Positions 1 to 25,992 of a stretch of 29,479 bases of DNA are shown in pieces. Source of the DNA: Utricularia gibba (Eukaryota > Streptophyta > Magnoliopsida > Lamiales > Lentibulariaceae); assembly GCA_002189035.1 (NCBI GenBank), contig NEEC01000504.1, positions 1 to 29,479 on the forward strand. The letters are read 5' to 3'. Position 1 is the stretch's first letter. Every line of letters begins with the position of its first letter. A program made the position numbers and the translations under genes. A model generated the notes under the pieces. The model was not told the DNA's origin and did not search any database. It saw only the letters and a list, made by a program, of their open reading frames with translations.

Positions 1-156
1 AAATAAAGTGATGTATTTATTAACGTTCAGTTTTTGGGGGCTGCCTACATGGTTTTTCAAGGAACAGCTTCTCGTTTTGTGGCGGCCAGTCTCGCTGGGA
101 ACTTGGTCCTTGACCCGATTATGTATTGCTCATGAGGTCAACCGGATGCAAATTGA
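1..156 (+). repeat. Half-unit 1 of the monomer (proposed ancestral ~156-bp repeat)
   Basis: In the reference monomer this half aligns with the following half at an offset of 155-158 bases. Matching landmarks in this half are TGATG at 9-13, ACATGGTTTTTCAA at 47-60, CAGCTT at 65-70, GGCGGC at 81-86, GTCT at 89-92, GAC at 112-114, and the TGCT/GGCT site at 127-130 followed by GAG. Around TGATG, 14 of 22 aligned bases agree by eye. Around ACATG, 13 of 15 columns agree with one mismatch and one gap. The order of landmarks is conserved, which supports duplication of one ancestral unit rather than scattered chance matches. Overall identity is low, so the duplication is old. Confidence 0.7.
146..153 (+). 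promoter_or_regulatory. Octamer-like ATGCAAAT site (reference copy)
   Basis: ATGCAAAT is identical to the canonical octamer bound by POU-domain proteins in animals. It is present in class A and most intermediate monomers. In class B monomers it becomes ATGGAAAT, and in several others the C is missing (ATGAAAT). An 8-base match in a 312-bp unit can arise by chance, and plants lack POU proteins, so this is only a motif match. Confidence 0.3.
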
Positions 157-185
157 TTAAAAAAATGATGCCTTGTTTAAATTAC

Positions 186-199
186 GATATCACGTGCAC
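186..199. other. Invariant chain of three overlapping palindromes (reference copy)
   Basis: GATATC at 186-191, CACGTG at 191-196 and GTGCAC at 194-199 overlap end to end. In every monomer I read, including the most deleted one near 11.3 kb, this 14-base core is unchanged, although neighbouring tracts vary freely. CACGTG is the canonical E-box/G-box core recognised by basic helix-loop-helix or bZIP proteins in animals, fungi and plants. Binding here is inference only. The core also supplies one EcoRV, PmlI and ApaLI-type site per monomer; the second arm of the inverted repeat adds another GTGCAC. Confidence 0.85.
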
Positions 200-257
200 C
201 CCACATGATTTTTTCAACAACTTACTTTATACTTGAGGAGGCGGTCTTGGGGTGCAC
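194..257. repeat. 10-bp inverted repeat within each monomer (reference copy)
   Basis: GTGCACCCCA at 194-203 is the exact reverse complement of TGGGGTGCAC at 248-257. The intervening 44 bases hold the second ACATG-T-run motif and GAGGAGGCGG. Bases just outside and inside the arms do not pair. In many other copies one arm loses a C or the other loses a G, giving CACCCACA or CTTGGGTGC. A 9-bp pairing survives in all of them. Whether those losses are real or sequencing error is unclear. Confidence 0.8.
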
Positions 258-3200
258 CTAGAACGGGACAAAGGTCAGGTTTGGCTTGCGCGAGAGTTAG
301 TTGTAGCTCGGAAAATAAAGTGATGTATTTATTAACGTTCAGTTTTGGGGGGCTGCCTACATGGTTTTTCAAGGAACGCTTCTCGTTTTGTGGCGGCCAG
401 TCTCGCTGGGAACTTGGTCCTTGACCCCGATTCTGTATGCTCATGAGGTCAACCGGATGCAAATTGATTAAAAAAAATGATGCCTTTGTTTAAATTACGA
501 TATCACGTGCACCCCACATGATTTTTTCAACAACTTACTTTATACTTGAGGAGGCGGTCTTGGGGTGCACCTAGAACGGGACAAAGGTCAGGTTTGGCTT
601 GCGCCGAGAGTTAGTTGTAGCTCGGAAATAAAGTGATGTATTTATTAACGTTCAGTTTTGGGGGCTGCCTACATGGTTTTTCAAGGAACAGCTTCTCGTT
701 TTGTGGCGGCCAGTCTCGCTGGGAACTTGGTCCTTGACCCGATTCTGTATGGCTCATGAGGTCAACCGGATGCAAATCGATTAAAAAATGATGCCTTTGT
801 TTAAATTACGATATCACGTGCACCCCACATGATTTTTTCAACAACTTACTTTATACTTGGAGGCGGTCTTGGGGTGCACCTAGAACGGGACAAAGGTCAG
901 GTTTGGCTTGCGCCGAGAGTTAGTTGTAGCTCGGAAAATAAAGTGATGTATTTATTAACGTTCAGTTTTGGGGCTGCCTACATGGTTTTTCAAGGAACAG
1001 CTTCTCGTTTTGTGGCGGCCAGTCTCGCTGGGAACTTGGTCCTTGACCCGATTTGTATGGCTCATGAGGTCAACCGGATAAATCGATTAAAAAAAATGAT
1101 GCCTTTGTTTAAATTACGATATCACGTGCACCCACATGATTTTTTCAACAACTTACTTTATACTTGAGGAGGCGGTGGGTGCACCTAGAACGGGACAAAG
1201 GTCAGGTTTGGCTTGCGCCGAGAGTTAGTTGTACTCGGAAAAAAGTGATGTATTTATTAACGTTCAGTTTTTGGGGGCTGCCTACATGGTTTTTCAAGGA
1301 ACAGCTTCTCGTTTTTGGCGGCCAGTCTCGCTGGGAACTTGGTCCTTGACCCCGATTATGTATGCTCATGAGGTCAACCGGATGCAAATGATTAAAAAAA
1401 TGATGCCTTTGTTTAAATTACGATATCACGTGCACCCACATGATTTTTTCAACAACTTACTTTATACTTGAGGAGGCGGTCTTGGGTGCACCTAGAACGG
1501 GACAAAGGTCAGGTTTGGCTTGCGCCGAGAGTTAGTTGTAGCTCGGAAAATAAAGTGATGTATTTATTAACGTTCAGTTTTGGGGGCTGCCTACATGGTT
1601 TTTCAAGGAACAGCTTCTCGTTTTGTGGCGGCCAGTCTCGGGAACTTGGTCCTTGACCCGATTCTGTATGCTCATGAGGTCAACCGGATGCAAATCGATT
1701 AAAAAAATGATGCCTTTTTTAAATTACGATATCACGTGCACCCACATGATTTTTTCAACAACTTGCTTTATACTTGAGGAGGCGGTCTTGGGGTGCACCT
1801 AGAACGGGACAAAGGTCAGGTTTGGCTTGCGCCGAGAGTTAGTTGTAGCTCGGAAAATAAAGTGATGTATTTATTAACGTTCAGTTTTGGGGGCTGCCTA
1901 CATGGTTTTTCAAGGAACAGCTTCTCGTTTTGTGGCGGCCAGTCTCGCTGGGAACTTGGTCCTTGACCCGATTATGTATGCTCATGAGGTCAACCGGATG
2001 AAATTGATTAAAAAAAATGATGCCTTTGTTTAAATTACGATATCACGTGCACCCCACATGATTTTTTCAACAACTTACTTTATACTTGAGGAGGCGGTCT
2101 TGGGTGCACCTAACGGGACAAAGGTCAGGTTTGGCTTGCGCGAGAGTTAGTTGTAGCTCGGCAAATAAAGTGATGTATTTATTAACGTTCAGTTTTGGGG
2201 GCTGCCTACATGGTTTTTCAAGGAACAGCTTCTCGTTTTGTGGCGGCCAGTCTCGCTGGGAACTTGGTCCTTGACCCGATTCTGTATGCTCATGAGGTCA
2301 ACGGATGCAAATCGATTAAAAAAATGATGCCTTTGTTTAAATTACGATATCACGTGCACCCACATGATTTTTTCAACAACTTACTTTATACTTGAGGAGG
2401 CGGTCTTGGGGTGCACCTAACGGGACAAAGGTCAGGTTTGGCTTGCGCCGAGAGTTAGTTGTAGCTCGGCAAATAAAGTGATGTATTTATTAACGTTCAG
2501 TTTTTGGGGGCTGCCTACATGGTTTTTCAAGGAACAGCTTCTCGTTTTGTGGCGGCCAGTCTCGCTGGGAACTTGGTCCTTGACCCCGATTCTGTATGGC
2601 TCATGAGGTCAACCGGATGGAAATCGATTAAAAAATGATGCCTTTCTTTAAATTACGATATCACGTGCACCCACATGATTTTTTCAACAACTTACTTTAT
2701 ACTTGAGGAGGCGGTCTTGGGGTGCACCTAGAACGGGACAAAGGTCAGGTTTGGCTTGCGCGAGAGTTAGTTGTACTCGGAAAATAAAGTGATGTATTTA
2801 TTAACGTTCAGTTTTTGGGGGCTGCCTACATGGTTTTTCAAGGAACAGCTTCTCGTTTTGTGGCGGCCAGTCTCGCTGGGAACTTGGTCCTTGACCCGAT
2901 TATGTATTGCTCATGAGGTCAACCGGATGCAAATTGATTAAAAAAAATGATGCCTTGTTTAAATTACGATATCACGTGCACCCCACATGATTTTTTCAAC
3001 AACTTACTTTATACTTGAGGAGGCGGTCTTGGGGTGCACCTAGAACGGGACAAAGGTCAGGTTTGGCTTGCGCCGAGAGTTAGTTGTAGCTCGGAAAATA
3101 AAGTGATGTATTTATTAACGTTCAGTTTTGGGGGCTGCCTACATGGTTTTTCAAGGAACAGCTTCTCGTTTTGTGGCGGCCAGTCTCGCTGGGAACTTGG

Positions 3201-6200
3201 TCTTGACCCCGATTATGTATTGCTCATGAGGTCAACCGGATGCAAATCGATTAAAAAAAATGATGCCTTTGTTTAAATTACGATATCACGTGCACCCACA
3301 TGATTTTTTCACAACTTACTTTATACTTGAGGAGGCGGTCTTGGGGTGCACCTAGAACGGGACAAAGGTCAGGTTTGGCTTGCGCCGAGAGTTAGTTGTA
3401 GCTCGGAAAAAAGTGATGTATTTATTAACGTTCAGTTTTGGGGGCTGCCTACATGGTTTTTCAAGGAACAGCTTCTCGTTTTGTGGCGGCCAGTCTCGCT
3501 GGGAACTTGGTCCTTGACCCCGATTATGTATGCTCATGAGGTCAACCGGATGCAAATCGATTAAAAAATGATGCCTTTGTTTAAATTACGATATCACGTG
3601 CACCCCACATGATTTTTTCAACAACTTACTTTATACTTGGAGGCGGTCTTGGGGTGCACCTGAACGGGACAAAGGTCAGGTTTGGCTTGCGCCGAGAGTT
3701 AGTTGTAAGCTCGGAAAATAAAGTGATGTATTTATTAACGTTCAGTTTTGGGGGCTGCCTACATGGTTTTTTCAAGGAACAGCTTCTCGTTTTGTGGCGG
3801 CCAGTCTCGCTGGGAACTTGGTCCTTGACCCCGATTCTGTATGGCTCATGAGGTCAACCGGATGCAAATCGATTAAAAAATGATGCCTTTTTTAAATTAC
3901 GATATCACGTGCACCCCACATGATTTTTTCAACAACTTACTTTATACTTGAGGAGGCGGTCTTGGGGTGCACCTGGAACGGGACAAAGGTCAGGTTTGGC
4001 TTGCGCCGAGAGTTAGTTGTAGCTCGGCAAATAAAGTGATGTATTTATTAACGTTCAGTTTTGGGGGCTGCCTACATGGTTTTTCAAGGAACAGCTTCTC
4101 GTTTTGTGGCGGCCAGTCTCGCTGGGAACTTGGTCCTTGACCCCGATTCTGTATGCTCATGAGGTCAACCGGATGCAAATCGATTAAAAAAAATGATGCC
4201 TTTGTTTAAATTACGATATCACGTGCACCCACATGATTTTTCAACAACTTACTTTATACTTGAGGAGGCGGTCTTGGGTGCACCTAGAACGGGACAAAGG
4301 TCAGGTTTGGCTTGCGCCGAGAGTTAGTTGTACTCGGCAAATAAAGTGATGTATTTATTAACGTTCAGTTTTTGGGGGCTGCCTACATGGTTTTTCAAGG
4401 AACAGCTTCTCGTTTTGTGGCGGCCAGTCTCGCTGGGAACTTGGTCCTTGACCCCGATTCTGTATGGCTCATGAGGTCAACCGGATGCAAATCGATTAAA
4501 GAAAATGATGCCTTTGTTTAAATTACGATATCACGTGCACCCACATGATTTTTTCAACAACTTCTTTATACTTGGAGGCGGTCTTGGGGTGCACCTGGAA
4601 CGGGACAAAGGTCAGGTTTGGCTTGCGCCGAGAGTTAGTTGTACTCGGCAAATAAAGTGATGTATTTATTAACGTTCAGTTTTGGGGGCTGCCTACATGG
4701 TTTTTCAAGGAACAGCTTCTCGTTTTGTGGCGGCCAGTCTCGCTGGGAACTTGGTCTTGACCCCGATTATGTATTGCTCATGAGGTCAACCGGATGCAAA
4801 TTGATTAAAAAAAATGATGCCTTTGTTTAAATTACGATATCACGTGCACCCACATGATTTTTTCAACAACTTACTTTATACTTGAGGAGGCGGTCTTGGG
4901 GTGCACCTAGAACGGGACAAAGGTCAGGTTTGGCTTGCGCCGAGAGTTAGTTGTAGCTCGGCAAATAAAGTGATGTATTTATTAACGTTCAGTTTTGGGG
5001 GCTGCCTACATGGTTTTTCAAGGAACAGCTTCTCGTTTTGTGGCGGCCAGTCTCGCTGGGAACTTGGTCCTTGACCCGATTCTGTATGGCTCATGAGGTC
5101 AACCGGATGAAATCGATTAAAAAATGATGCCTTTGTTTAAATTACGATATCACGTGCACCCACATGATTTTTTCAACAACTTACTTTATACTTGGAGGCG
5201 GTCTTGGGGTGCACCTAGAACGGGACAAAGGTCAGGTTTGGCTTGCGCCGAGAGTTAGTTGTAGCTCGGAAAATAAAGTGATGTATTTATTAACGTTCAG
5301 TTTTGGGGGCTGCCTACATGGTTTTTCAAGGAACAGCTTCTCGTTTTGTGGCGGCCAGTCTCGCTGGGAACTTGGTCCTTGACCCGATTATGTATTGCTC
5401 ATGAGGTCAACCGGATGCAAATCGATTAAAAAAAATGATGCCTTTGTTTAAATTACGATATCACGTGCACCCCACATGATTTTTTCAACAACTTACTTTA
5501 TACTTGAGGAGGCGGTCTTGGGTGCACCTAGAACGGGACAAAGGTCAGGTTTGGCTTGCGCCGAGAGTTAGTTGTAGCTCGGAAATAAAGTGATGTATTT
5601 ATTAACGTTCAGTTTTGGGGCTGCCTACATGGTTTTTCAAGGAACAGCTTCTCGTTTTGTGGCGGCCAGTCTCGCTGGGAACTTGGTCCTTGACCCCGAT
5701 TCTGTATGCTCATGAGGTCAACCGGATGCAAATCGATTAAAAAAATGATGCCTTTGTTTAAATTACGATATCACGTGCACCCCACATGATTTTTTCAACA
5801 ACTTACTTTATACTTGAGGAGGCGGTCTTGGGGTGCACCTAGAACGGGACAAAGGTCAGGTTTGGCTTGCGCCGAGAGTTAGTTGTAGCTCGGAAATAAA
5901 GTGATGTATTTATTAACGTTCAGTTTTTGGGGGCTGCCTACATGGTTTTTCAAGGAACAGCTTCTCGTTTTGTGGCGGCCAGTCTCGCTGGGAACTTGGT
6001 CCTTGACCCCGATTCTGTATGGCTCATGAGGTCAACCGGATGGAAATCGATTAAAGAAAATGATGCCTTTTTTAAATTACGATATCACGTGCACCCCACA
6101 TGATTTTTTCAACAACTTACTTTATACTTGAGGAGGCGGTCTTGGGGTGCACCTAGAACGGACAAAGGTCAGGTTTGGCTTGCGCCGAGAGTTAGTTGTA

Positions 6201-9200
6201 GCTCGGAAATAAAGTGATGTATTTATTAACGTTCAGTTTTGGGGGCTGCCTACATGGTTTTTCAAGGAACAGCTTCTCGTTTTGTGGCGGCCAGTCTCGC
6301 TGGGAACTTGGTCCTTGACCCCGATTATGTATGGCTCATGAGGTCAACCGGATGCAAATCGATTAAAAAAATGATGCCTTTGTTTAAATTACGATATCAC
6401 GTGCACCCACATGATTTTTTCAACAACTTACTTTATACTTGAGGAGGCGGTCTTGGGGTGCACCTAGAACGGGACAAAGGTCAGGTTTGGCTTGCGCCGA
6501 GAGTTAGTTGTAGCTCGGAAAATAAAGTGATGTATTTATTAACGTTCAGTTTTGGGGGCTGCCTACATGGTTTTTCAAGGAACAGCTTCTCGTTTTGTGG
6601 CGGCCAGTCTCGCTGGGAACTTGGTCCTTGACCCCGATTCTGTATGGCTCATGAGGTCAACCGGATGCAAATCGATTAAAAAAATGATGCCTTTGTTTAA
6701 ATTACGATATCACGTGCACCCCACATGATTTTTTCAACAACTTACTTTATACTTGAGGAGGCGGTCTTGGGGTGCACCTAGAACGGGACAAAGGTCAGGT
6801 TTGGCTTGCGCCGAGAGTTAGTTGTAGCTCGGCAAATAAAGTGATGTATTTATTAACGTTCAGTTTTTGGGGCTGCCTACATGGTTTTTCAAGGACAGCT
6901 TCTCGTTTTGTGGCGGCCAGTCTCGCTGGGAACTTGGTCCTTGACCCCGATTCTGTATGGCTCATGAGGTCAACCGGATGCAAATCGATTAAAGAAAATG
7001 ATGCCTTTTTTAAATTACGATATCACGTGCACCCCACATGATTTTTTCAACAACTTACTTTATACTTGAGGAGGCGGTCTTGGGGTGCACCTAGAACGGG
7101 ACAAAGGTCAGGTTTGGCTTGCGCCGAGAGTTAGTTGTAGCTCGGCAAATAAAGTGATGTATTTATTAACGTTCAGTTTTTGGGGCTGCCTACATGGTTT
7201 TTCAAGGAACAGCTTCTCGTTTTGTGGCGGCCAGTCTCGCTGGGAACTTGGTCCTTGACCCCGATTCTGTATGCTCATGAGGTCAACCGGATGCAAATCG
7301 ATTAAAAAAATGATGCCTTTGTTTAAATTACGATATCACGTGCACCCCACATGATTTTTTCAACAACTTACTTTATACTTGAGGAGGCGGTCTTGGGGTG
7401 CACCTAGAACGGGACAAAGGTCAGGTTTGGCTTGCGCGAGAGTTAGTTGTAGCTCGGAAATAAAGTGATGTATTTATTAACGTTCAGTTTTTGGGGGCTG
7501 CCTACATGGTTTTTCAAGGAACAGCTTCTCGTTTTGTGGCGGCCAGTCTCGCTGGGAACTTGGTCCTTGACCCCGAGTATGCTCATGAGGTCAACCGGAT
7601 GGAAATCGATTAAAAAAAATGATGCCTTTCTTTAAATTACGATATCACGTGCACCCCACATGTTTTTCAACAACTTACTTTATACTTGAGGAGGCGGTCT
7701 TGGGGTGCACCTAGAACGGGACAAAGGTCAGGTTTGGCTTGCGCCGAGAGTTAGTTGTAGCTCGGAAAATAAAGTGATGTATTTATTAACGTTCAGTTTT
7801 GGGGGCTGCCTACATGGTTTTTCAAGGAACAGCTTCTCGTTTTGTGGCGGCCAGTCTCGCTGGGAACTTGGTCCTTGACCCGATTATGTATGGCTCATGA
7901 GGTCAACCGGATGCAAATCGATTAAAAAAAATGATGCCTTTGTTTAAATTACGATATCACGTGCACCCACATGATTTTTTCAACAACTTACTTTATACTT
8001 GAGGAGGCGGTCTTGGGGTGCACCTAGAACGGGACAAAGGTCAGGTTTGGCTTGCGCCGAGAGTTAGTTGTAGCTCGGCAAATAAAGTGATGTATTTATT
8101 AACGTTCAGTTTTGGGGGCTGCCTACATGGTTTTTCAAAACAGCTTCTCGTTTTGTGGCGGCCAGTCTCGCTGGGAACTTGGTCCTTGACCCCGATTATG
8201 TATTGCTCATGAGGTCAACCGGATGCAAATCGATTAAAAAAAATGATGCCTTTGTTTAAATTACGATATCACGTGCACCCCACATGATTTTTTCAACAAC
8301 TTACTTTATACTTGAGGAGGCGGTCTTGGGGTGCACCTAGAACGGGACAAAGGTCAGGTTTGGCTTGCGCCGAGAGTTAGTTGTAGCTCGGAAAATAAAG
8401 TGATGTATTTATTAACGTTCAGTTTTGGGGGCTGCCTACATGGTTTTTCAAGGAACAGCTTCTCGTTTTGTGGCGGCCAGTCTCGCTGGGAACTTGGTCC
8501 TTGACCCCGATTCTGTATGCTCATGAGGTCAACCGGATGAAATCGATTAAAAAATGATGCCTTTTTTTAAATTACGATATCACGTGCACCCCACATGATT
8601 TTTTCAACAACTTACTTTATACTTGAGGAGGCGGTCTTGGGTGCACCTAGAACGGGACAAAGGTCAGGTTTGGCTTGCGCCGAGAGTTAGTTGTAGCTCG
8701 GAAAATAAAGTGATGTATTTATTAACGTTCAGTTTTGGGGGCTGCCTACATGGTTTTTCAAGGAACAGCTTCTCGTTTTGTGGCGGCCAGTCTCGCTGGG
8801 AACTTGGTCCTTGACCCCGATTATGTATTGCTCATGAGGTCAACCGGATGCAAATCGATTAAAAAAATGATGCTTTGTTTAAATTACGATATCACGTGCA
8901 CCCACATGATTTTTTCAACAACTTACTTTATACTTGAGGAGGCGGTCTTGGGGTGCACCTAGAACGGGACAAAGGTCAGGTTTGGCTTGCGCCGAGAGTT
9001 AGTTGTAGCTCGGAAAATAAAGTGATGTATTTATTAACGTTCAGTTTTTGGGGGCTGCCTACATGGTTTTTCAAGGAACAGCTTCTCGTTTTGTGGCGGC
9101 CAGTCTCGCTGGGAACTTGGTCCTTGACCCCGATTCTGTATGGCTCATGAGGTCAACCGGATGGAAATCGATTAAAGAAAATGATGCCTTTCTTTAAATT

Positions 9201-9329
9201 ACGATATCACGTGCACCCCACATGATTTTTTCAACAACTTACTTTATACTTGAGGAGGCGGTCTTGGGTGCACCTAGAACGGGACAAAGGTCAGGTTTGG
9301 CTTGCGCCGAGAGTTAGTTGTAGCTCGGA

Positions 9330-9630
9330 AAATAAAGTGATGTCAGTTTTGGGGGCTGCCTACATGGTTTTTCAAGGAACAGCTTCTCGTTTTGTGGCGG
9401 CCAGTCTCGCTGGGAACTTGGTCCTTGACCCCGATTATGTATGGCTCATGAGGTCAACCGGATGCAAATCGATTAAAAAAATGATGCCTTTGTTTAAATT
9501 ACGATATCACGTGCACCCCACATGATTTTTTCAACAACTTACTTTATACTTGAGGAGGCGGTCTTGGGGTGCACCTAGAACGGGACAAAGGTCAGGTTTG
9601 GCTTGCGCCGAGAGTTAGTTGTAGCTCGGA
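9330..9630 (+). repeat. Monomer with an internal deletion after GTGATGT
   Basis: This copy reads GTGATGTCAGTTTTGGGGG. About a dozen bases that normally read ATTTATTAACGT are missing, giving a 301-bp unit. It follows a class B-like unit and itself carries ATTATGTATGG, so it sits at a B-to-A transition. The deletion is larger than the usual one- or two-base losses, so it is more likely a genuine event than base-calling noise. Confidence 0.75.
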
Positions 9631-11168
9631 AAATAAAGTGATGTATTTATTAACGTTCAGTTTTGGGGGCTGCCTACATGGTTTTTCAAGGAACAGCTTC
9701 TCGTTTTGTGGCGGCCAGTCGCTGGGAACTTGGTCCTTGACCCCGATTCTGTATGGCTCATGAGGTCAACCGGATGGAAATCGATTAAAAAATGATGCCT
9801 TTCTTTAAATTACGATATCACGTGCACCCCACATGATTTTTTCAACAACTTGCTTTATACTTGAGGAGGCGGTCTTGGGGTGCACCTAGAACGGGACAAA
9901 GGTCAGGTTTGGCTTGCGAGAGTTAGTTGTAGCTCGGAAAATAAAGTGATGTTTATTAACGTTCAGTTTTGGGGGCTGCCTACATGGTTTTTCAAGGAAC
10001 AGCTTCTCGTTTTGTGGCGGCCAGTCTCGCTGGGAACTTGGTCCTTGACCCCGATTATGTATTGCTCATGAGGTCAACCGGATGCAAATCGATTAAAAAA
10101 AATGATGCCTTTGTTTAAATTACGATATCACGTGCACCCCACATGATTTTTTCAACAACTTACTTTATACTTGAGGAGGCGGTCTTGGGGTGCACCTAGA
10201 ACGGGACAAAGGTCAGGTTTGGCTTGCGCCGAGAGTTAGTTGTAGCTCGGAAAATAAAGTGATGTATTTATTAACGTTCAGTTTTGGGGGCTGCCTACAT
10301 GGTTTTTCAAGGAACAGCTTCTCGTTTTGTGGCGGCCAGTCTCGCTGGGAACTTGGTCCTTGACCCCGATTATGTATGGCTCATGAGGTCAACCGGATGA
10401 AATGATTAAAAAAATGATGCCTTTGTTTAAATTACGATATCACGTGCACCCCACATGATTTTTTCAACAACTTACTTTATACTTGAGGAGGCGGTCTTGG
10501 GTGCACCTAGAACGGGACAAAGGTCAGGTTTGGCTTGCGCGAGAGTTAGTTGTAGCTCGGAAAATAAAGTGATGTATTTATTAACGTTCAGTTTTGGGGG
10601 CTGCCTACATGGTTTTTCAAGGAACAGCTTCTCGTTTTGTGGCGGCCAGTCTCGCTGGGAACTTGGTCCTTGACCCCGATTCTGTATGCTCATGAGGTCA
10701 ACCGGATGAAATCGATTAAAAAAATGATGCCTTTGTTTAAATTACGATATCACGTGCACCCCACATGATTTTTTCAACAACTTACTTTATACTTGAGGAG
10801 GCGGTCTTGGGGTGCACCTAGAACGGGACAAAGGTCAGGTTTGGCTTGCGCCGAGAGTTAGTTGTAGCTCGGCAAAAAGTGATGTATTTATTAACGTTCA
10901 GTTTTGGGGCTGCCTACATGGTTTTTCAAGGAACAGCTTCTCGTTTTGTGGCGGCCAGTCTCGCTGGGAACTTGGTTGACCCCGATTCTGTATGGCTCAT
11001 GAGGTCAACCGGATGGAAATCGATTAAAGAAAATGATGCCTTTTTTAAATTACGATATCACGTGCACCCCACATGATTTTTTCAACAACTTGCTTTATAC
11101 TTGAGGAGGCGGTCTTGGGGTGCACCTGGAACGGGACAAAGGTCAGGTTTGGCTTGCGAGAGTTAGTT

Positions 11169-11440
11169 AAATAAAGTGATGGCGGTTCAGCCTACATGGT
11201 TTTTCAAGGAACAGCTTCTCGTTTTGTGGCGGCCAGTCTCGCTGGGAACTTGGTCCTTGACCCCGATTTATGCTCATGAGGTGATGCAAATTGATTAAAA
11301 AAAATGATTAAATTACGATATCACGTGCACCCACATGATTTTTTCAACAACTTACTTTATACTTGAGGAGGCGGTCTTGGGTGCACCTAGAACGGGACAA
11401 AGGTCAGGTTTGGCTTGCGCGAGAGTTAGTTGTAGCTCGG
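11169..11440 (+). repeat. Compacted monomer of 272 bp with many internal deletions
   Basis: This is the shortest monomer, about 40 bp below the norm. Just upstream it has lost TGTAGCTCGG before AAATAAAG. Inside it has lost much of TATTTATTAAC, the TTTTGGGGGCTG tract, part of TTCTGTATG, CAACCG in GAGGTCAACCGG, and the GCCTTTGTTT tract. The palindromic core, both inverted-repeat arms (with one C missing) and the long middle part from CCTACATGG to GACCCCG are intact. Several separate losses in one copy suggest either a decayed unit or a locally poor consensus. The preceding unit (10874-11168, 295 bp) is also short. Confidence 0.85.
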
Positions 11441-14400
11441 AAATAAAGTGATGTATTTATTAACGTTCAGTTTTGGGGCTGCCTACATGGTTTTTCAAGG
11501 AACAGCTTCTCGTTTTGTGGCGGCCAGTCTCGCTGGGAACTTGGTCCTTGACCCCGATTATGTATTGCTCATGAGGTCAACCGGATGCAAATTGATTAAA
11601 AAAATGATGCCTTTGTTTAAATTACGATATCACGTGCACCCCACATGATTTTTCAACTTACTTTTACTTGAGGAGGCGGTCTTGGGGTGCACCTAGAACG
11701 GGACAAAGGTCAGGTTTGGCTTGCGCCGAGAGTTAGTTGTAGCTCGGAAATAAAGTGATGTATTTATTAACGTTCAGTTTTTGGGGGCTGCCTACATGGT
11801 TTTTCAAGGAACTTCTCGTTTTGTGGCGGCCAGTCTCGCTGGGAACTTGGTCCTTGACCCCGATTCTGTATGCTCATGAGGTCAACCGGATGCAAATCGA
11901 TTAAAAAAATGATGCCTTTGTTTAAATTACGATATCACGTGCACCCCACATGATTTTTTCAACAACTTACTTTATACTTGAGGAGGCGGTCTTGGGGTGC
12001 ACCTAGAACGGGACAAAGGTCAGGTTTGGCTTGCGCCGAGAGTTAGTTGTACTCGGCAAATAAAGTGATGTTTATTAACGTTCAGTTTTTGGGGGCTGCC
12101 TACATGGTTTTTCAAGGAACAGCTTCTCGTTTTGTGGCGGCCAGTCTCGCTGGGAACTTGGTCCTTGACCCCGATTCTGTATGCTCATGAGGTCAACCGG
12201 ATGAAATCGATTAAAAAAATGATGCCTTTTTAAATTACGATATCACGTGCACCCCACATGATTTTTTCAACAACTTACTTATACTTGGAGGCGGTCTTGG
12301 GGTGCACCTGGAACGGGACAAAGGTCAGGTTTGGCTTGCGCCGAGAGTTAGTTGTAACTCGGCAAATAAAGTGATGTATTTATTAACGTTCAGTTTTTGG
12401 GGGCTGCCTACATGGTTTTTCAAGGAACAGCTTCTCGTTTTGTGGCGGCCAGTCTCGCTGGGAACTTGGTCCTTGACCCGATTATGTATTGCTCATGAGG
12501 TCAACCGGATGCAAATGATTAAAAAAATGATGCCTTGTTTAAATTACGATATCACGTGCACCCCACATGATTTTTTCAACAACTTACTTTATACTTGAGG
12601 AGGCGGTCTTGGGGTGCACCTAGAACGGGACAAAGGTCAGGTTTGGCTTGCGCCGAGAGTTAGTTGTACTCGGAAAATAAAGTGATGTATTTATTAACGT
12701 TCAGTTTTGGGGGCTGCCTACATGGTTTTTCAAGGAACAGCTTCTCGTTTTGTGGCGGCCAGTCTCGCTGGGAACTTGGTCCTTGACCCCGATTATGTAT
12801 TGCTCATGAGGTCAACCGGATGCAAATCGATTAAAAAAAATGATGCCTTTGTTTAAATTACGATATCACGTGCACCCACATGATTTTTTCAACAACTTAC
12901 TTTATACTTGAGGAGGCGGTCTTGGGTGCACCTAGAACGGGACAAAGGTCAGGTTTGGCTTGCGAGTTAGTTGTAGCTCGGAAAATAAAGTGATGTATTT
13001 ATTAACGTTCAGTTTTGGGGGCTGCCTACATGGTTTTTCAAGGGCTTCTCGTTTTGTGGCGGCCAGTCTCGCTGGGAACTTGGTCCTTGACCCCGATTCT
13101 GTATGCTCATGAGGTCAACCGGATGCAAATCGATTAAAGAAAATGATGCCTTTGTTTAAATTACGATATCACGTGCACCCCACATGATTTTTTCAACAAC
13201 TTGCTTTATACTTGAGGAGGCGGTCGGGTGCACCTAGAACGGGACAAAGGTCAGGTTTGGCTTGCGCCGAGAGTTAGTTGTAGCTCGGCAAATAAAGTGA
13301 TGTATTTATTAACGTTCAGTTTTTGGGGCTGCCTACATGGTTTTTCAAGGAACAGCTTCTCGTTTTGTGGCGGCCAGTCTCGCTGGGAACTTGGTCCTTG
13401 ACCCCGATTCTGTATGGCTCATGAGGTCAACCGGATGGAAATCGATTAAAGAAAATGATGCCTTTTTTAAATTACGATATCACGTGCACCCACATGATTT
13501 TTTCAACAACTTACTTTATACTTGAGGAGGCGGTCTTGGGGTGCACCTAGAACGGACAAAGGTCAGGTTTGGCTTGCGGAGAGTTAGTTGTAGCTCGGAA
13601 ATAAAGTGATGTATTTATTAACGTTCAGTTTTGGGGCTGCCTACATGGTTTTTCAAGGAACAGCTTCTCGTTTTGTGGCGGCCAGTCTCGCTGGGAACTT
13701 GGTCCTTGACCCCGATTCTGTATGGCTCATGAGGTCAACCGGATGAAATCGATTAAAAAAAAATGATGCCTTGTTTAAATTACGATATCACGTGCACCCC
13801 ACATGATTTTTTCAACAACTTACTTTATACTTGAGGAGGCGGTCTTGGGGTGCACCTAGAACGGGACAAAGGTCAGGTTTGGCTTGCGCGAGAGTTAGTT
13901 GTAGCTCGGCAAATAAAGTGATGTATTTATTAACGTTCAGTTTTGGGGGCTGCCTACATGGTTTTTCAAGAACAGCTTCTCGTTTTGTGGCGGCCAGTCT
14001 CGCTGGGAACTTGGTCCTTGACCCCGATTATGTATGCTCATGAGGTCAACCGGATGAAAGATTAAAAAAAATGATGCCTTTGTTTAAATTACGATATCAC
14101 GTGCACCCACATGATTTTTTCAACTTACTTTATACTTGAGGAGGCGGTCTTGGGTGCACCTAGAACGGGACAAAGGTCAGGTTTGGCTTGCGGAGAGTTA
14201 GTTGTAGCTCGGAAAATAAAGTGATGTATTTATTAACGTTCAGTTTTGGGGGGCTGCCTACATGGTTTTTCAAGGAACAGCTTCTCGTTTTGTGGCGGCC
14301 AGTCTCGCTGGGAACTTGGTCCTTGACCCCGATTCTGTATGCTCATGAGGTCAACCGGATGCAAATCGATTAAAAAAATGATGCCTTTGTTTAAATTACG

Positions 14401-17400
14401 ATATCACGTGCACCCCACATGATTTTTTCAACAACTTACTTTATACTTGAGGAGGCGGTCTTGGGGTGCACCTAGAACGGGACAAAGGTCAGGTTTGGCT
14501 TGCGCCGAGAGTTAGTTGTAGCTCGGCAAATAAAGTGATGTATTTATTAACGTTCAGTTTTTGGGGGCTGCCTACATGGTTTTTCAAGGAACAGCTTCTC
14601 GTTTTGTGGCGGCCAGTCTCGCTGGGAACTTGGTCCTTGACCCCGATTCTGTATGCTCATGAGGTCAACCGGATGGAAATCGATTAAAGAAAATGATGCC
14701 TTTTCTTTAAATTACGATATCACGTGCACCCCACATGATTTTTTCAACAACTTGCTTTATACTTGAGGAGGCGGTCTTGGGGTGCACCTGAACGGACAAA
14801 GGTCAGGTTTGGCTTGCGAGAGTTAGTTGCGGCAAATAAAGTGATGTATTTATTAACGTTCAGTTTTTGGGGGCTGCCTACATGGTTTTTCAAGAACAGC
14901 TTCTCGTTTTGTGGCGGCCAGTCTCGCTGGGAACTTGGTCCTTGACCCCGATTATGTATTGCTCATGAGGTCAACCGGATGCAAATCGATTAAAAAAAAT
15001 GATGCCTTTGTTTAAATTACGATATCACGTGCACCCCACATGATTTTTTCAACAACTTACTTTATACTTGAGGAGGCGGTCTTGGGGTGCACCTAGAACG
15101 GGACAAAGGTCAGGTTTGGCTTGCGGAGAGTTAGTTGTAGCTCGGAAAATAAAGTGATGTATTTATTAACGTTCAGTTTTGGGGGCTGCCTACATGGTTT
15201 TTCAAGGAACAGCTTCTCGTTTTGTGGCGGCCAGTCTCGCTGGGAACTTGGTCCTTGACCCCGATTATGTATTGCTCATGAGGTCAACCGGATGCAAATC
15301 GATTAAAAAAATGATGCCTTTGTTTAAATTACGATATCACGTGCACCCCACATGATTTTTTCAACAACTTACTTTATACTTGAGGAGGCGGTCTTGGGGT
15401 GCACCTAGAACGGGACAAAGGTCAGGTTTGGCTTGCGCGAGAGTTAGTTGTAGCTCGGAAAATAAAGTGATGTATTTATTAACGTTCAGTTTTGGGGGCT
15501 GCCTACATGGTTTTTCAAGGAACAGCTTCTCGTTTTGTGGCGGCCAGTCTCGCTGGGAACTTGGTCCTTGACCCCGATTCTGTATGCTCATGAGGTCAAC
15601 CGGATGAAATCGATTAAAAAAATGATGCCTTTGTTTAAATTACGATATCACGTGCACCCCACATGATTTTTCAACAACTTACTTTATACTTGAGGAGGCG
15701 GTCTTGGGTGCACCTAGAACGGGACAAAGGTCAGGTTTGGCTTGCGCCGAGAGTTAGTTGTAGCTCGGCAAATAAAGTGATGTATTTATTAACGTTCAGT
15801 TTTGGGGGCTGCCTACATGGTTTTTCAAGGAACAGCTTCTCGTTTTGTGGCGGCCAGTCTCGCTGGGAACTTGGTCCTTGACCCGATTCTGTATGCTCAT
15901 GAGGTCAACCGGATGCAAATCGATTAAAAAAATGATGCCTTTGTTTAAATTACGATATCACGTGCACCCCACATGATTTTTTCAACAACTTACTTTATAC
16001 TTGAGGAGGCGGTCTTGGGGTGCACCTAGAACGGGACAAAGGTCAGGTTTGGCTTGCGCCGAGAGTTAGTTGTAGCTCGGAAAATAAAGTGATGTATTTA
16101 TTAACGTTCAGTTTTGGGGGCTGCCTACATGGTTTTTCAAGGAACAGCTTCTCGTTTTGTGGCGGCCAGTCTCGCTGGGAACTTGGTCCTTGACCCCGAT
16201 TCTGTATGGCTCATGAGGTCAACCGGATGGAAATCGATTAAAAAAATGATGCCTTTGTTTAAATTACGATATCACGTGCACCCCACATGATTTTTTCAAC
16301 AACTTACTTTATACTTGAGGAGGCGGTCTTGGGGTGCACCTAGAACGGGACAAAGGTCAGGTTTGGCTTGCGCCGAGAGTTAGTTGTACTCGGAAAATAA
16401 AGTGATGTATTTATTAACGTTCAGTTTTTGGGGGCTGCCTACATGGTTTTTCAAGGAACAGCTTCTCGTTTTGTGGCGGCCAGTCTCGCTGGGAACTTGG
16501 TCCCCCCGATTCTGTAGCTCATGAGGTCAACCGGATAAATCGATTAAAAAATGATGCCTTTTTTTAAATTACGATATCACGTGCACCCCACATGATTTTT
16601 TCAACAACTTGCTTTATACTTGAGGAGGCGGTCTTGGGGTGCACCTGGAACGGGACAAAGGTCAGGTTTGGCTTGCGCCGAGAGTTAGTTGTAGCTCGGC
16701 AAATAAAGTGATGTATTTATTAACGTTCAGTTTTTGGGGCTGCCTACATGGTTTTCAAGGAACAGCTTCTCGTTTTGTGGCGGCCAGTCTCGCTGGGAAC
16801 TTGGTCCTTGACCCCGATTATGTATTGCTCATGAGGTCAACCGGATGCAAATGATTAAAAAAAATGATGCCTTTGTTTAAATTACGATATCACGTGCACC
16901 CCACATGATTTTTTCAACAACTTACTTTATACTTGAGGAGGCGGTCTTGGGTGCACCTAGAACGGGACAAAGGTCAGGTTTGGCTTGCGCGAGAGTTAGT
17001 TGTAGCTCGGAAATAAAGTGATGTATTTATTAACGTTCAGTTTTTGGGGCTGCCTACATGGTTTTCAAGGAACAGCTTCTCGTTTTTGGCGGCCAGTCTC
17101 GCTGGGAACTTGGTCCTTGACCCGATTCTGTATGCTCATGAGGTCAACCGGATGCAAATCGATTAAAAAATGATGCCTTTTTTTAAATTACGATATCACG
17201 TGCACCCCACATGATTTTTTCAACAACTTACTTTATACTTGAGGAGGCGGTCTTGGGGTGCACCTGAACGGGACAAAGGTCAGGTTTGGCTTGCGGAGAG
17301 TTAGTTGTAGGGAAAATAAAGTGATGTATTTATTAACGTTCAGTTTTGGGGCTGCCTACATGGTTTTTCAAGGAACAGCTTCTCGTTTTGTGGCGGCCAG

Positions 17401-20400
17401 TCTCGCTGGGAACTTGGTCCTTGACCCCGATTCTGTATGCTCATGAGGTCAACCGGATGCAAATCGATTAAAGAAAATGATGCCTTTGTTAAATTACGAT
17501 ATCACGTGCACCCCACATGATTTTTTCAACAACTTACTTTATACTTGAGGAGGCGGTCTTGGGGTGCACCTAGAACGGACAAAGGTCAGTTTGGCTTGCG
17601 CCGAGAGTTTAGTTGTAGCTCGGCAAATAAAGTGATGTATTTATTAACGTTCAGTTTTTTGGGGGCTGCCTACATGGTTTTTCAAGGAACAGCTTCTCGT
17701 TTTGTGCGGCCAGTCTCGCTGGGAACTTGGTTGACCCCGATTCTGTATGGCTCATGAGGTCAACCGGATGGAAATCGATTAAAAAATGATGCCTTTGTTT
17801 AAATTACGATATCACGTGCACCCCACATGATTTTTTCAACAACTTCTTTATACTTGAGGAGGCGGTCTTGGGGTGCACCTAGAACGGGACAAAGGTCAGG
17901 TTTGGCTTGCGCCGAGAGTTAGTTGTAACTCGGAATAAAGTGATGTATTTATTAACGTTCAGTTTTTGGGGGCTGCCTACATGGTTTTTCAAGAACAGCT
18001 TCTCGTTTTGTGGCGGCCAGTCTCGCTGGGAACTTGGTCCTTGACCCGATTATGTATTGCTCATGGTCAACCGGATGCAAATGATTAAAAAAATGATGCC
18101 TTGTTTAAATTACGATATCACGTGCACCCCACATGATTTTTTCAACAACTTACTTTATACTTGAGGAGGCGGTCTTGGGGTGCACCTAGAACGGACAAAG
18201 GTCAGGTTTGGCTTGCGGAGAGTTAGTTGTAGCTCGGCAAATAAAGTGATGTATTTATTAACGTTCAGTTTTTGGGGGCTGCCTACATGGTTTTTCAAGG
18301 AACAGCTTCTCGTTTTGTGGCGGCCAGTCTCGCTGGGAACTTGGTCCTTGACCCCGATTATGTATGCTCATGAGGTCAACCGGATGCAAATTGATTAAAA
18401 AAATGATGCCTTTGTTTAAATTACGATATCACGTGCACCCCACATGATTTTTCAACAACTTACTTTATACTTGAGGAGGCGGTCTTGGGTGCACCTAGAA
18501 CGGACAAAGGTCAGGTTTGGCTTGCGGAGAGTTAGTTGTAGCTCGGAAATAAAGTGATGTATTTATTAACGTTCAGTTTTGGGGCTGCCTACATGGTTTT
18601 TCAAGGAACAGCTTCTCGTTTTGTGGCGGCCAATCTCGCTGGGAACTTGGTCCTTGACCCCGATTCTGTATGCTCATGAGGTCAACCGGATGCAAATCGA
18701 TTAAAAAAATGATGCCTTTGTTTAAATTACGATATCACGTGCACCCCACATGATTTTTTCAACAACTTACTTTATACTTGAGGAGGCGGTCTTGGGGTGC
18801 ACCTAGAACGGGACAAAGGTCAGTTTGGCTTGCGTGAGAGTTAGTTGTAGCTCGGAAAATAAAGTGATGTATTTATTAACGTTCAGTTTTTGGGGCTGCC
18901 TACATGGTTTTTCAAGGAACAGCTTCTCGTTTTGTGGCGGCCAGTCTCGCTGGGAACTTGGTCCTGACCCCGATTGTAGCTCATGAGGTCAACCGGATGA
19001 AATCGATTAAAAAAATGATGCCTTTTTAAATTACGATATCACGTGCACCCCACATTTTTTTCAACAACTTGCTTTATACTTGAGGAGGCGGTCTTGGGGT
19101 GCACCTAGAACGGGACAAAGGTCAGGTTTGGCTTGCGGAGAGTTAGTTGTAGCTCGGAAAATAAAGTGATGTATTTATTAACGTTCAGTTTTGGGGCTGC
19201 CTACATGGTTTTTCAAGGAACAGCTTCTCGTTTTGTGGCGGCCAGTCTCGCTGGAATTGGTCCTTGACCCGATTCTGTATGCTCATGAGGTCAACCGGAT
19301 GAAATCGATTAAAGAAAATGATGCCTTTGTTTAAATTACGATATCACGTGCACCCCACATGATTTTTTCAACAACTTACTTTATACTTGAGGAGGCGGTC
19401 TTGGGTGCACCTAGAACGGGACAAAGGTCAGGTTTGGCTTGCGCCGAGAGTTAGTTGTAGCTCGGAAAATAAAGTGATGTATTTATTAACGTTCAGTTTT
19501 GGGGCTGCCTACATGGTTTTTCAAGGAACAGCTTCTCGTTTTGTGGCGGCCAGTCTCGCTGGGAACTTGGTCCTTGACCCCGATTCTGTATGGCTCATGA
19601 GGTCAACCGGATGCAAATCGATTAAAAAATGATGCCTTTGTTTAAATTACGATATCACGTGCACCCCACATGATTTTTTCAACAACTTACTTTATACTTG
19701 AGGAGGCGGTCTTGGGTGCACCTAGAACGGACAAAGGTCAGGTTTGGCTTGCGCGAGAGTTAGTTGTAGCTCGGAAAATAAAGTGATGTATTTATTAACG
19801 TTCAGTTTTTGGGGCTGCCTACATGGTTTTTCAAGGAACAGCTTCTCGTTTTGTGGCGGCCAGTCTCGCTGGGAACTTGGTCCTTGACCCCGATTATGTA
19901 TGGCTCATGAGGTCAACCGGATGCAAATGATTAAAAAAATGATGCCTTTGTTTAAATTACGATATCACGTGCACCCCACATGATTTTTTCAACAACTTAC
20001 TTTATACTTGAGGAGCGGTCTTGGGGTGCACCTAGAACGGGACAAAGGTCAGGTTTGGCTTGCGCCGAGAGTTAGTTGTAGCTCGGAAAATAAAGTGATG
20101 TATTTATTAACGTTCAGTTTTTTGGGGGCTGCCTACATGGTTTTTCAAGGAACAGCTTCTCGTTTTGTGGCGGCCAGTCTCGCTGGGAACTTGGTCCTTG
20201 ACCCCGATTCTGTATGCTCATGAGGTCAACCGGATGCAAATTGATTAAAAAAAATGATGCCTTTGTTTAAATTACGATATCACGTGCACCCACATGATTT
20301 TTTCAACAACTTACTTTATACTTGAGGAGGCGGTCTTGGGTGCACCTAGAACGGGACAAAGGTCAGGTTTGGCTTGCGCCGAGAGTTAGTTGTAGCTCGG

Positions 20401-23400: not shown

Positions 23401-25992
23401 GATTTTTTCAACAACTTACTTTATACTTGAGGAGGCGGTCTTGGGGTGCACCTAGAACGGGACAAAGGTCAGGTTTGGCTTGCGCCGAGAGTTAGTTGTA
23501 GCTCGGAAAATAAAGTGATGTATTTATTAACGTTCAGTTTTGGGGGGCTGCCTACATGGTTTTTCAAGGAACAGCTTCTCGTTTTGTGGCGGCCAGTCTC
23601 GCTGGGAACTTGGTCCTTGACCCGTATGCTCATGAGGTCAACCGGATGCAAATTGATTAAAAAAAATGATGCCTTTGTTTAAATTACGATATCACGTGCA
23701 CCCCACATGATTTTTTCAACAACTTACTTTATACTTGAGGAGGCGGTCTTGGGGTGCACCTAGAACGGGACAAAGGTCAGGTTTGGCTTGCGCCGAGAGT
23801 TAGTTGTAGCTCGGAAAATAAAGTGATGTATTTATTAACGTTCAGTTTTTGGGGGCTGCCTACATGGTTTTTCAAGGAACAGCTTCTCGTTTTTGTGCGG
23901 CCAGTCTCGCTGGGAACTTGGTCTTGACCCCGATTATGTATGGCTCATGAGGTCAACCGGATGGAAATCGATTAAAGAAAATGATGCCTTTGTTTAAATT
24001 ACGATATCACGTGCACCCCATGATTTTTCAACAACTTACTTTATACTTGAGGAGGCGGTCTTGGGGTGCACCTGGAACGGGACAAAGGTCAGGTTTGGCT
24101 TGCGCCGAGAGTTAGTTGTAGCTCGGCAAATAAGTGATGTATTTATTAACGTTCAGTTTTGGGGGCTGCCTACATGGTTTTTCAAGGAACAGCTTCTCGT
24201 TTTGTGGCGGCCAGTCTCGCTGGGAACTTGGTCCCCGATTCTGTATGGCTCATGAGGTCAACCGGATGGAAATCGATTAAAGAAAATGATGCCTTTCTTT
24301 AAATTACGATATCACGTGCACCCCACATGATTTTTTCAACAACTTGCTTTATACTTGTGGAGGCGGTCTTGGGGTGCACCTGGAACGGGACAAAGGTCAG
24401 GTTTGGCTTGCGCCGAGAGTTAGTTGTAGCTCGGAAAATAAAGTGATGTATTTATTAACGTTCAGTTTTTGGGGGCTGCCTACATGGTTTTTCAAGAACA
24501 GCTTCTCGTTTTGTGGCGGCCAGTCTCGCTGGGAACTTGGTCCTTGACCCCGATTATGTATGGCTCATGAGGTCAACCGGATGCAAATCGATTAAAAAAA
24601 TGATGCCTTTGTTTAAATTACGATATCACGTGCACCCCACATGATTTTTTCAACAACTTACTTTATACTTGAGGAGGCGGTCTTGGGGTGCACCTAGAAC
24701 GGGACAAAGGTCAGGTTTGGCTTGCGCGAGAGTTAGTTGTAGCTCGGAAAATAAAGTGATGTATTTATTAACGTTCAGTTTTTGGGGGCTGCCTACATGG
24801 TTTTTCAAGGAACAGCTTCTCGTTTTGTGGCGGCCAGTCTCGCTGGGAACTTGGTCCTTGACCCCGATTATGTATGCTCATGAGGTCAACCGGATGCAAA
24901 TCGATTAAAAAAATGATGCCTTTGTTTAAATTACGATATCACGTGCACCCCACATGATTTTCAACAACTTACTTTATACTTGAGGAGGCGGTCTTGGGGT
25001 GCACCTAGAACGGGACAAAGGTCAGGTTTGGCTTGCGCCGAGAGTTAGTTGTAGCTCGGCAAAATGTGATGTATTTATTAACGTTCAGTTTTCGGGGGCT
25101 GCCTACATGGTTTTTCAAGGAACAGCTTCTCGTTTTGTGGCGGCCAGTCTCTGGAACTTGGTCCCCCCCGATTCTGTATGGCTCATGAGGTCAACCGGAT
25201 GCAAATCGATTAAAGAAAATGATGCCTTTCTTTAAATTACGATATCACGTGCACCCCACATGATTTTTTCAACAACTTACTTTATACTTGAGGAGGCGGT
25301 CTTGGGGTGCACCTGGAACGGGACAAAGGTCAGGTTTGGCTTGCGCCGAGAGTTAGTTGTAGCTCGGAAAATAAAGTGATGTATTTATTAACGTTCAGTT
25401 TTTGGGGCTGCCTACATGGTTTTTCAAGGAACAGCTTCTCGTTTTGTGGCGGCCAGTCTCGCTGGGAACTTGGTCCTTGACCCCGATTCTGTATGCTCAT
25501 GAGGTCAACCGGATGCAAATGATTAAAAAAAATGATGCCTTTGTTTAAATTACGATATCACGTGCACCCCATGATTTTTTCAACAACTTACTTTATACTT
25601 GAGGAGGCGGTCTTGGGGTGCACCTAGAACGGGACAAGGTCAGGTTTGGCTTGCGCCGAGAGTTAGTTGTAGCTCGGAAAATAAAGTGATGTATTTATTA
25701 ACGTTCAGTTTTTGGGGGCTGCCTACATGGTTTTTCAAGGAACAGCTTCTCGTTTTGTGGCGGCCAGTCTCGCTGGGAACTTGGTCCTTGACCCCGATTA
25801 TGTATGGCTCATGAGGTCAACCGGATGCAAATCGATTAAAAAAAATGATGCCTTTTTTAAATTACGATATCACGTGCACCCCACATGATTTTTTCAACAA
25901 CTTACTTTATACTTGAGGAGGCGGTCTTGGGGTGCACCTGAACGGGACAAAGGTCAGGTTTGGCTTGCGCCGAGAGTTAGTTGTAGCTCGGA

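What the first reader, a model, noticed from the sequence alone, without database searches (positions are those of the whole stretch)
1..312. The 312-bp monomer looks like an ancient dimer of a ~156-bp repeat
Inside one monomer, landmarks recur in the same order at an offset of 155-158 bp, half the unit. They are TGATG (9/166), ACATG-T-run-CAA (47/203), CAGCTT versus CAACTT (65/218), GGNGGC then GTCT (81/237 and 89/244), GAC (112/267), and GGCT then GAG (127/283). About 156 bp is close to a nucleosome repeat and 312 bp to a dinucleosome. Dimerisation followed by homogenisation of the dimer is a known route of satellite evolution. The two halves have since taken distinct roles in sequence terms: only half 2 holds the invariant palindromic core.
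Basis: seen in the sequence. Interest (0 to 1): 0.7.

Follow-up and report, generated by a model that had tools for sequence, protein, structure and literature searches.

The report
Plant satellite born as a dimer
A 313-base repeat that fills this whole contig of a small plant genome really does consist of two diverged copies of an older repeat of about 156 bases, doubled before its known subfamilies separated; this is a known way for satellites to evolve, here unusually well documented.

Summary
Half A and half B of the consensus unit align beyond chance (89/153 identical, 0 of 2000 shuffles). Offset 157 is the only peak in banded circular self-alignment (0 of 500 shuffles). The same genome holds relatives: V (225/307 identical to the window's unit U; contig-end array of about 218 kb if unbroken between probes) and X (inside a 2.33-kb composite repeat). 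Both show the half-unit similarity. In a tree of 29 half-units, the 15 A and 14 B halves lie on opposite sides of a 100/100 branch, so the doubling predates the U/V/X split. Where one half varies between U and V, the other holds one of the two states in 49/63 columns (wrong registers 0.49; 0 of 134). An unrelated ~340-bp family shows no such peak (0 of 5 units). 1167 of 1175 close half junctions alternate. One contig adds a five-unit higher-order repeat. No 156-bp array of this family was found in 72 fetched loci. The nucleosome reading got no support. Host: probably Utricularia gibba (inferred). Known kind; New World monkey alpha satellite is the best precedent.

The parts
1..29479 (+). head-to-tail satellite array filling the whole contig (G000:C86), ~95 copies of a 313-bp unit (subfamily U)
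   Evidence: TRF period 313, 95.2 copies, 95% matches; 94 of 96 parsed monomers at least 90% complete, mean 0.992 to consensus
1..156 (+). half A of the first unit (descendant of one ~156-bp ancestral monomer)
   Evidence: aligns to half B 89/153 in consensus, 0 of 2000 shuffles; on one side of a 100/100 branch with the other A halves, 15 in all
157..312 (+). half B of the first unit (the other ancestral monomer)
   Evidence: same tests
9..59 (+). A copy of the stretch best shared by the halves (TGATG ... ACATGGTTTTTCA)
166..217 (+). B copy of the same stretch (TGATG ... ACATGATTTTTTCAA)
186..200 (+). overlapping palindromes, GATATCACGTGCACC, in half B; the matching place in half A of this subfamily lacks it, half A of X1/X2 has TCACGAGC
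   Evidence: sequence; compared across subfamilies
194..257 (+). 10-nt perfect inverted repeat GTGCACCCCA / TGGGGTGCAC (194-203, 248-257), both arms in half B

Best explanation
The 313-bp unit is the product of one ancient doubling of a ~156-bp satellite monomer. Exchange between repeats then spread and homogenised the AB pair, so the unit of turnover became the dimer and the halves drifted apart. The pair later split into U (this window), V and X, and U locally built longer higher-order repeats, such as a 5-unit, 1.57-kb one on contig C11. Shown here: the half-unit homology, its presence in three subfamilies, the A/B split in the tree, the alternation, the higher-order repeat. Inferred: that the process was unequal crossing over or conversion, and that the arrays are centromere- or pericentromere-associated (my probability about 0.5). 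Columns identical in both halves also vary less between subfamilies, as expected if a ~156-bp module is under some constraint; what reads it is unknown.
For: Half-unit peak: U 40 at offset 157, V 92 at 155/156, both 0 of 500 dinucleotide shuffles, best offset elsewhere -90 in each. Half against half by shuffle z: U 5.3 and V 7.4, X1 6.6, X2 6.3, and 3.8 or more in all 14 units tested (X3, cut short in half B, was left out). Tree: A 15 and B 14 on opposite sides of a 100/100 branch; holding the five X halves together is rejected, p-AU 8.5e-45 (I chose that group after seeing the sequences). Other half holds one of the two states: U/V 49/63, U/X1 42/62, V/X1 46/66, U/X2 39/52, wrong registers 0.49-0.50, reached in 0, 0, 1, 1 of 134 (for U/X2 there are 139 usable columns, so shift 139 in that scan is the true register itself). 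Columns fixed in both subfamilies have A=B in 65-72%, other columns 31-38%. Columns identical between halves vary between 7 subfamily consensi in 18.0% (of 178), against 34.4% (of 128) where halves differ: 0 of 305 circular shifts, 25 of 10000 base-and-CpG-stratified permutations, 0 of 126 wrong registers. Junctions AB 589, BA 578, AA 4, BB 4. Higher-order repeat on C11: lag-5 identity 0.986 against 0.954-0.961 at lags 1-4 and 6-9. Negative control: 0 of 5 units of the ~340-bp family show a half-unit peak.
Against: No 156-bp array of this family was found, but only part of the genome was read. How far the halves have drifted depends on the alignment: aligned pairwise, U 89/153, V 105/144, X1 97/147, X2 96/137, but in one four-way alignment U has 84/154 and V 79/154, so 'V and X are closer to the monomer' is not secure. 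Among the closer subfamilies (U, t0-t4, C10b), variants do not move toward the other half more than chance (19/50 = 0.38 against 0.34; 24 of 106 shifts reach it); the ancestral-state signal comes from the deeper comparisons. The last ~50 bases of the halves are barely alike. For the centromere part: in the listings in contig order, exact U words begin at C7 or C10, V words at C34 and X words at C150 (one-mismatch places not shown), so contigs C1-C6 hold none of these exact words, and among them C3 and C4 carry telomere repeats at both ends; and the ~340-bp family also sits at contig ends.
Confidence: 0.85

Rival explanations
1. The halves are not copies; the same short functional motifs (protein or nucleosome sites) recur at ~156-bp spacing by convergence.
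For: Identity is concentrated in part of the half, and columns shared by the halves are the less variable ones, as spaced functional motifs would also give.
Against: The alignment runs through about 100 bases with few gaps. Columns that vary in one half still carry a state of the other half in 0.68-0.78 of cases against about 0.5. No 10-bp periodicity.
Confidence: 0.05
2. The halves were made or kept similar by later conversion between A and B inside the array, so the age of the doubling cannot be read from their similarity.
For: One half-unit on C11 (43528-43670) reads A 1-65 then B 72-150, roughly in homologous register, giving a 1.5-unit monomer; TRF sees a 151-bp period there. X2 halves match over a long first stretch.
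Against: 1167 of 1175 close junctions alternate; of the eight odd ones I examined the three on C11, and only one looked in register. The tree keeps A and B apart at 100/100. Conversion would still need two homologous halves to begin with.
Confidence: 0.08
3. The half-unit similarity is a by-product of base composition, homopolymers or assembly error in a noisy long-read contig.
For: Homopolymer lengths scatter between copies.
Against: The consensus was made from 80 copies; dinucleotide shuffles 0 of 2000; replicated in V, X and the C7, C8 and C11 copies; absent in the ~340-bp family of the same assembly.
Confidence: 0.01
4. The dimer origin is right, but the arrays are not centromeric: they are subtelomeric or interstitial heterochromatin.
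For: No exact U, V or X words on contigs C1-C6, of which C3 and C4 have telomere repeats at both ends; a second family of ~340 bp occupies other contig ends.
Against: C213 starts with telomere repeats and ends 3.7 Mb away in a V array: edge near 3,486,170, V in 5 of 5 probes from 3.52 to 3.67 Mb and in none of 6 probes from 3.10 to 3.48 Mb, V over nearly all of the last 11.5 kb. A long retroelement frame lies within 8.6 kb of the edge. This is one contig.
Confidence: 0.4

Closest known systems
[quoted passage not shown] 2013, PMC4053949, passages read)
   Same: An accepted unit that is a fixed dimer of an older, half-length monomer; the halves differ strongly.
   Different: Primate; the monomeric relative is known there and not here. 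Half-unit ~156 bp here, with three diverged dimeric subfamilies in one genome.
Human alpha satellite SF1/SF2 dimers, one half with a CENP-B box (PMC8122249, passages read)
   Same: Alternating A/B units differing by up to ~30%; a special motif in one half only; longer higher-order repeats built on top.
   Different: No CENP-B-like function is known here; in X the corresponding place of half A resembles that of half B, so the one-half motif looks like a loss.
AB-dimer higher-order repeats of plants, e.g. Sorghum bicolor (PMC4053949, passages read)
   Same: A and B monomers cluster apart in a tree.
   Different: There the single-monomer period is still seen; here TRF reports only the 313-bp period for the window.
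Genlisea nigrocaulis 161-bp repeat Gn7c161, reported as (peri)centromere-associated; same family as Utricularia (PMC4542322, passages read)
   Same: Monomer length near 156; most abundant tandem repeat of a small Lentibulariaceae genome.
   Different: Sequence relation not tested: the passages I read print only primers, which I did not compare.
Maize CentC, 156 bp (PMC4806543, passages read)
   Same: Length of the inferred ancestral monomer.
   Different: Length only; no sequence compared.

Membership tests
dimer-derived satellite (known kind) | two halves of the unit are homologous beyond chance | tested here: met
dimer-derived satellite (known kind) | A halves and B halves form two groups across subfamilies | tested here: met
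   100/100 branch, 29 rows
dimer-derived satellite (known kind) | a monomeric half-length relative exists | tested here: inconclusive
   none of this family in 72 fetched loci, 263,163 letters, plus the window; the rest of the genome was searched only by exact words or a few scored candidates; no plant relatives available
dimer-derived satellite (known kind) | homogenisation acts on the AB pair | tested here: met
   AB+BA 1167 of 1175 close junctions; mean 0.992 identity to consensus in the window
higher-order-repeat satellite | multi-unit period with identity above single-unit identity | tested here: met
   C11 lag 5 0.986 against 0.954-0.961 at lags 1-4 and 6-9; not seen in the window itself, where lags 1-12 are all 0.988-0.990
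plant centromeric satellite | binds CENH3 chromatin | not testable with these tools
   no ChIP or FISH data
plant centromeric satellite | long arrays on most chromosomes | tested here: inconclusive
   no exact U, V or X words on C1-C6, including C3 and C4 with telomere repeats at both ends; diverged copies could be missed, and most array contigs are not placed on chromosomes
plant centromeric satellite | 10-bp AT-dinucleotide periodicity (recalled as typical of some) | tested here: not met
   U 317/500, V 462/500 shuffles reach it
CENP-B-box satellite | CENP-B box | not tested
   no box consensus was scanned
structured RNA or tRNA-derived repeat | match to Rfam or a tRNA | tested here: not met
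   0 Rfam matches up to E 5 for window 1-1300; 0 tRNAs in the window, bacterial settings

The most novel reading that the evidence does not exclude
A whole satellite library of one tiny plant genome (U, V, X; perhaps several megabases) descends from a single doubling of a 156-bp monomer and marks the centromeric regions of only some chromosomes. The published view that U. gibba centromeric regions lack satellites would then reflect that only satellite-poor chromosomes assemble end to end.
Probability: 0.3. Interest if true: 0.65.

Novelty: new member of a known kind. Interest (0 to 1): 0.45.

Why it matters
It gives a clean plant case of the route 'monomer, dimer, dimer becomes the unit, dimer builds higher-order repeats', with three nested levels (156, ~313, ~1570 bp) and diverged subfamilies in one genome that let the order of events be read. 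It also bears on a published statement (PMC8333044, passages read) that putative centromeric regions of U. gibba lack satellite repeats: if the host is that species, its assembly holds thousands of copies of this family (1315 exact U words; 5016 exact words of V and X2/X3), including an array at the end of a 3.7-Mb contig.

Tried and rejected
Directional allele test among close subfamilies: no signal (19/50, 24 of 106 shifts reach it). AT-dinucleotide periodicity: none. Rfam and tRNA: none. Similarity to plasmid records: none. Unbanded rotation scan: uninformative, because small rotations of a unit against itself score high; replaced by the banded scan. SSU rRNA search for species identity failed on the machine and was not repeated; identity was approached by alpha-tubulin frames that look plant-like to me, rbcS, plant telomere repeats, a split COX1 and contig sizes. 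~340-bp family as a sister of U/V: best alignments to V 11-15 bases with E above 2, none to U up to E 10; rejected. C255 start as a 156-bp monomer array: its ~153-bp unit scores within rotation-matched shuffles against 8 of 8 half-units tested and holds a stretch like the 3' end of 5S rRNA (my reading); rejected. Array edge at C213 as a refuge of monomers: strict A/B alternation.

Copy numbers are rough. The U word with five T occurs 288 times and is 13 of 403 such sites in my fetched arrays, which are not a random sample; that would mean about 9,000 U-like copies with a wide error. The V word occurs 5016 times, but it also fits the X2 and X3 units; it is in 30 of ~37 units of the C213 sample, so perhaps 5,000-6,000 V copies. 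The X word with up to one mismatch occurs 436 times. A 26-base half-A word of U matches exactly 1315 times.

Full report
What is there. The whole 29,479-base window is one head-to-tail array (TRF period 313, 95.2 copies). It starts at base 1 of contig C86 of a 100,091,633-base assembly in 516 contigs. Of 96 parsed monomers, 94 are at least 90% complete and average 0.992 identity to the consensus.

Host. No name is given. A plant is indicated by RuBisCO small subunit (6 matches), alpha-tubulin frames that look plant-like to me and TTTAGGG-type telomere repeats at several contig ends. An arthropod cuticle family gave no match, but that search had no positive control. COX1 lies in two pieces about 960 bases apart on C515. 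Assembly size and a 6,822,880-base contig (C451) fit Utricularia gibba, for which a 6.8-Mb Unitig_8 is mentioned (PMC8333044, passages read). This is an inference. The assembly paper I had in mind (Lan et al. 2017) is not held and is recalled only.

Observation. The landmarks are real, with one exception at 127. Half A against half B of the consensus (80 copies): 89 of 153 aligned bases identical, score 93, 0 of 2000 mono- and 0 of 2000 dinucleotide shuffles; the local score is reached by 2 of 2000. In banded circular self-alignment of the unit only offsets near 157 stand out (40; best elsewhere -90; shuffles 0 of 400 and 0 of 500).

Independent relatives. The right end of C213 (3,704,653 bases, telomere repeats at the left end) is an array of ~308-312-bp units, V, 225 of 307 identical to U. 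V's own half-unit peak is higher: 92 at 155/156, shuffles 0 of 500. The array begins near 3,486,170, was V in 5 of 5 probes between 3.52 and 3.67 Mb and fills the last 11.5 kb apart from a short gap: about 218 kb if unbroken between probes. A 910-residue frame within 8.6 kb of the edge matches a retroviral SH3-like domain over its cut-off and an integrase core under it (first 400 residues); its copia type, and gypsy-like frames on the other strand, are my reading. The right end of C402 holds a 2.33-kb composite repeat with about 2.7 units of a third kind, X, plus ~62-bp repeats. X1 and X2 halves align at 97/147 and 96/137, z above 6.

History. In a maximum-likelihood tree of 29 half-units (158 columns) the 15 A and 14 B halves are separated by a 100/100 branch, 0 of 500 label shuffles as low. 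The doubling therefore came before U, V and X parted. If the halves share an ancestor, then where one half differs between two subfamilies and the other half is fixed, the fixed base should often be one of the two states. It is in 49/63 (U/V), 42/62 (U/X1), 46/66 (V/X1) and 39/52 (U/X2), against 0.49-0.50 in wrong registers, reached in 0, 0, 1 and 1 of 134. For U/X2 the scan includes the true register once, because there are only 139 usable columns. A different alignment of U and V gave 49/66. Among close subfamilies the directional form of this test shows nothing (19/50). Whether V and X halves are closer to each other than U halves depends on the alignment: pairwise yes, in one four-way alignment no (U 84/154, V 79/154).

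Constraint. Columns identical between the halves are also the steadier ones among seven subfamily consensi: 18.0% of 178 vary, against 34.4% of 128 where halves differ (0 of 305 shifts, 25 of 10000 stratified permutations, 0 of 126 wrong registers). This argues against chance similarity and hints at selection on a ~156-bp module or at slow-mutating positions; it does not say which.

Control. The same genome has an unrelated satellite family of ~336-356 bp (right ends of C244, C255, C451; starts of C402, C508). None of its 5 units tested shows a half-unit peak: the best score of each is reached by 13 to 30 of 60 mononucleotide shuffles.

Monomer search. TRF on the 72 fetched loci and the window gave 112 rows, 3 with a period of 140-172. 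One is the A/B hybrid on C11. Two are a ~153-bp repeat at the start of C255, whose unit scores within rotation-matched shuffles against 8 of 8 half-units and which holds a stretch like the 3' end of 5S rRNA (my reading). So no monomeric array of this family was seen.

Turnover. Over 11 fetched sets, half labels alternate at 1167 of 1175 close junctions (AB 589, BA 578, AA 4, BB 4). Of the eight odd junctions I examined the three on C11: one, at 43528-43670, reads A 1-65 then B 72-150, roughly in homologous register; two look like plain deletions. In the first ~15 kb of C11 the units form a 5-unit higher-order repeat: lag-5 identity over C11 1-48000 is 0.986 against 0.954-0.961 at lags 1-4 and 6-9, with type consensi 0.85-0.93 alike. 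The window has no such order.

The core. GATATCACGTGCACC lies in half B at 186-200. At the matching place half A of U reads differently, but half A of X1 and X2 reads TCACGAGC, and half B of V, X2, t0, C8a and C8b has departures. The motif was probably present in both halves at first and lost in A of U and V.

Place in the genome. Listings show at most the first 100 places, in contig order. The U places listed lie within the first ~62 kb of their contigs. Exact V words are first met on C34 and exact X words on C150. C1-C6 hold no exact U, V or X words; of these, C3 and C4 have telomere repeats at both ends. C213 ends in V, C402 in X, and C414 starts with 124 bp of U-like satellite followed by a stretch that looks retroelement-like to me. 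That fits blocks of centromeric or pericentromeric heterochromatin on some chromosomes, but subtelomeric or other blocks are not excluded, and the ~340-bp family competes for the role.

Literature. Dimerisation of a half-length monomer into a new unit is documented: the 343-bp unit of New World monkeys, and AB dimers in Sorghum (PMC4053949, passages); alternating alpha-satellite dimers (PMC8122249, passages; PMC7767330, passages). Five searches of the held library for Utricularia with satellite, centromere, tandem-repeat or CENH3 terms (10 of 11 listed; 20 of 1,850; 3 of 3; 9 of 9; 2 of 2) showed me no title or abstract start describing this repeat; in three of the papers I read passages. Most subscription papers are not held. 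PMC8333044 (passages) speaks of an absence of satellite repeats in putative centromeric regions of U. gibba.

Verdict. The finding is right in its main point and belongs to a known kind. Its value is the depth of evidence and the three nested levels in one very small plant genome. Its functional reading stays open.

Noticed in passing
L011-L012 (G000:C11:1-18000): Five-unit higher-order repeat (~1.57 kb) of the satellite in the first ~15 kb; the last 9.7 kb of the same contig (L017) are near-identical simple units, mean 0.995 to consensus.
   Followed up: yes
L046, L058, L071 (right end of G000:C213): Diverged relative V in an array of about 218 kb, if unbroken between probes, at the end of a contig that starts with telomere repeats; two-unit period of ~617 bp by TRF.
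   Followed up: partly
L050, L059, L072 (right end of G000:C402): Composite 2.33-kb tandem repeat that contains ~2.7 satellite units (X) and a block of ~62-bp repeats; the X word recurs in the same spacing on C150, C183, C196, C209 and C210.
   Followed up: partly
L047, L048, L055 (right ends of C244, C255, C451), L030, L038 (starts of C402, C508): A second, unrelated satellite family of ~336-356 bp at ends of large contigs; no half-unit similarity.
   Followed up: partly
L028 (G000:C255:1-1500): A ~153-bp tandem repeat with a long A-rich run, ending in a stretch that looks like the 3' end of plant 5S rRNA; not related to the satellite halves. Possibly a 5S-derived tandem repeat.
   Followed up: partly
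G000:C11:43528-43670: A single A/B hybrid half-unit, switching near the homologous position, giving a 1.5-unit monomer and a local 151-bp period.
   Followed up: partly
L018 (G000:C10:1-10000): Contig end with many short deletions inside units, including two units at only 0.75 identity; may be low-coverage assembly.
   Followed up: no
window 1-29479 and all fetched U arrays: Homopolymer lengths scatter between copies (window: A runs 5-8, one T run 3-5), as in a long-read assembly with residual indel errors.
   Followed up: no
L034, L057 (start of G000:C414): 124 bp of U-like satellite directly beside a stretch that looks like zinc-knuckle coding (my reading) and, further in, a reverse-transcriptase-type RNase H frame.
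   Followed up: partly
G000:C515:183547-185854: COX1 matched in two pieces (profile 1-210 and 211-436) about 960 bases apart, which would fit an intron in a plant mitochondrial contig.
   Followed up: no
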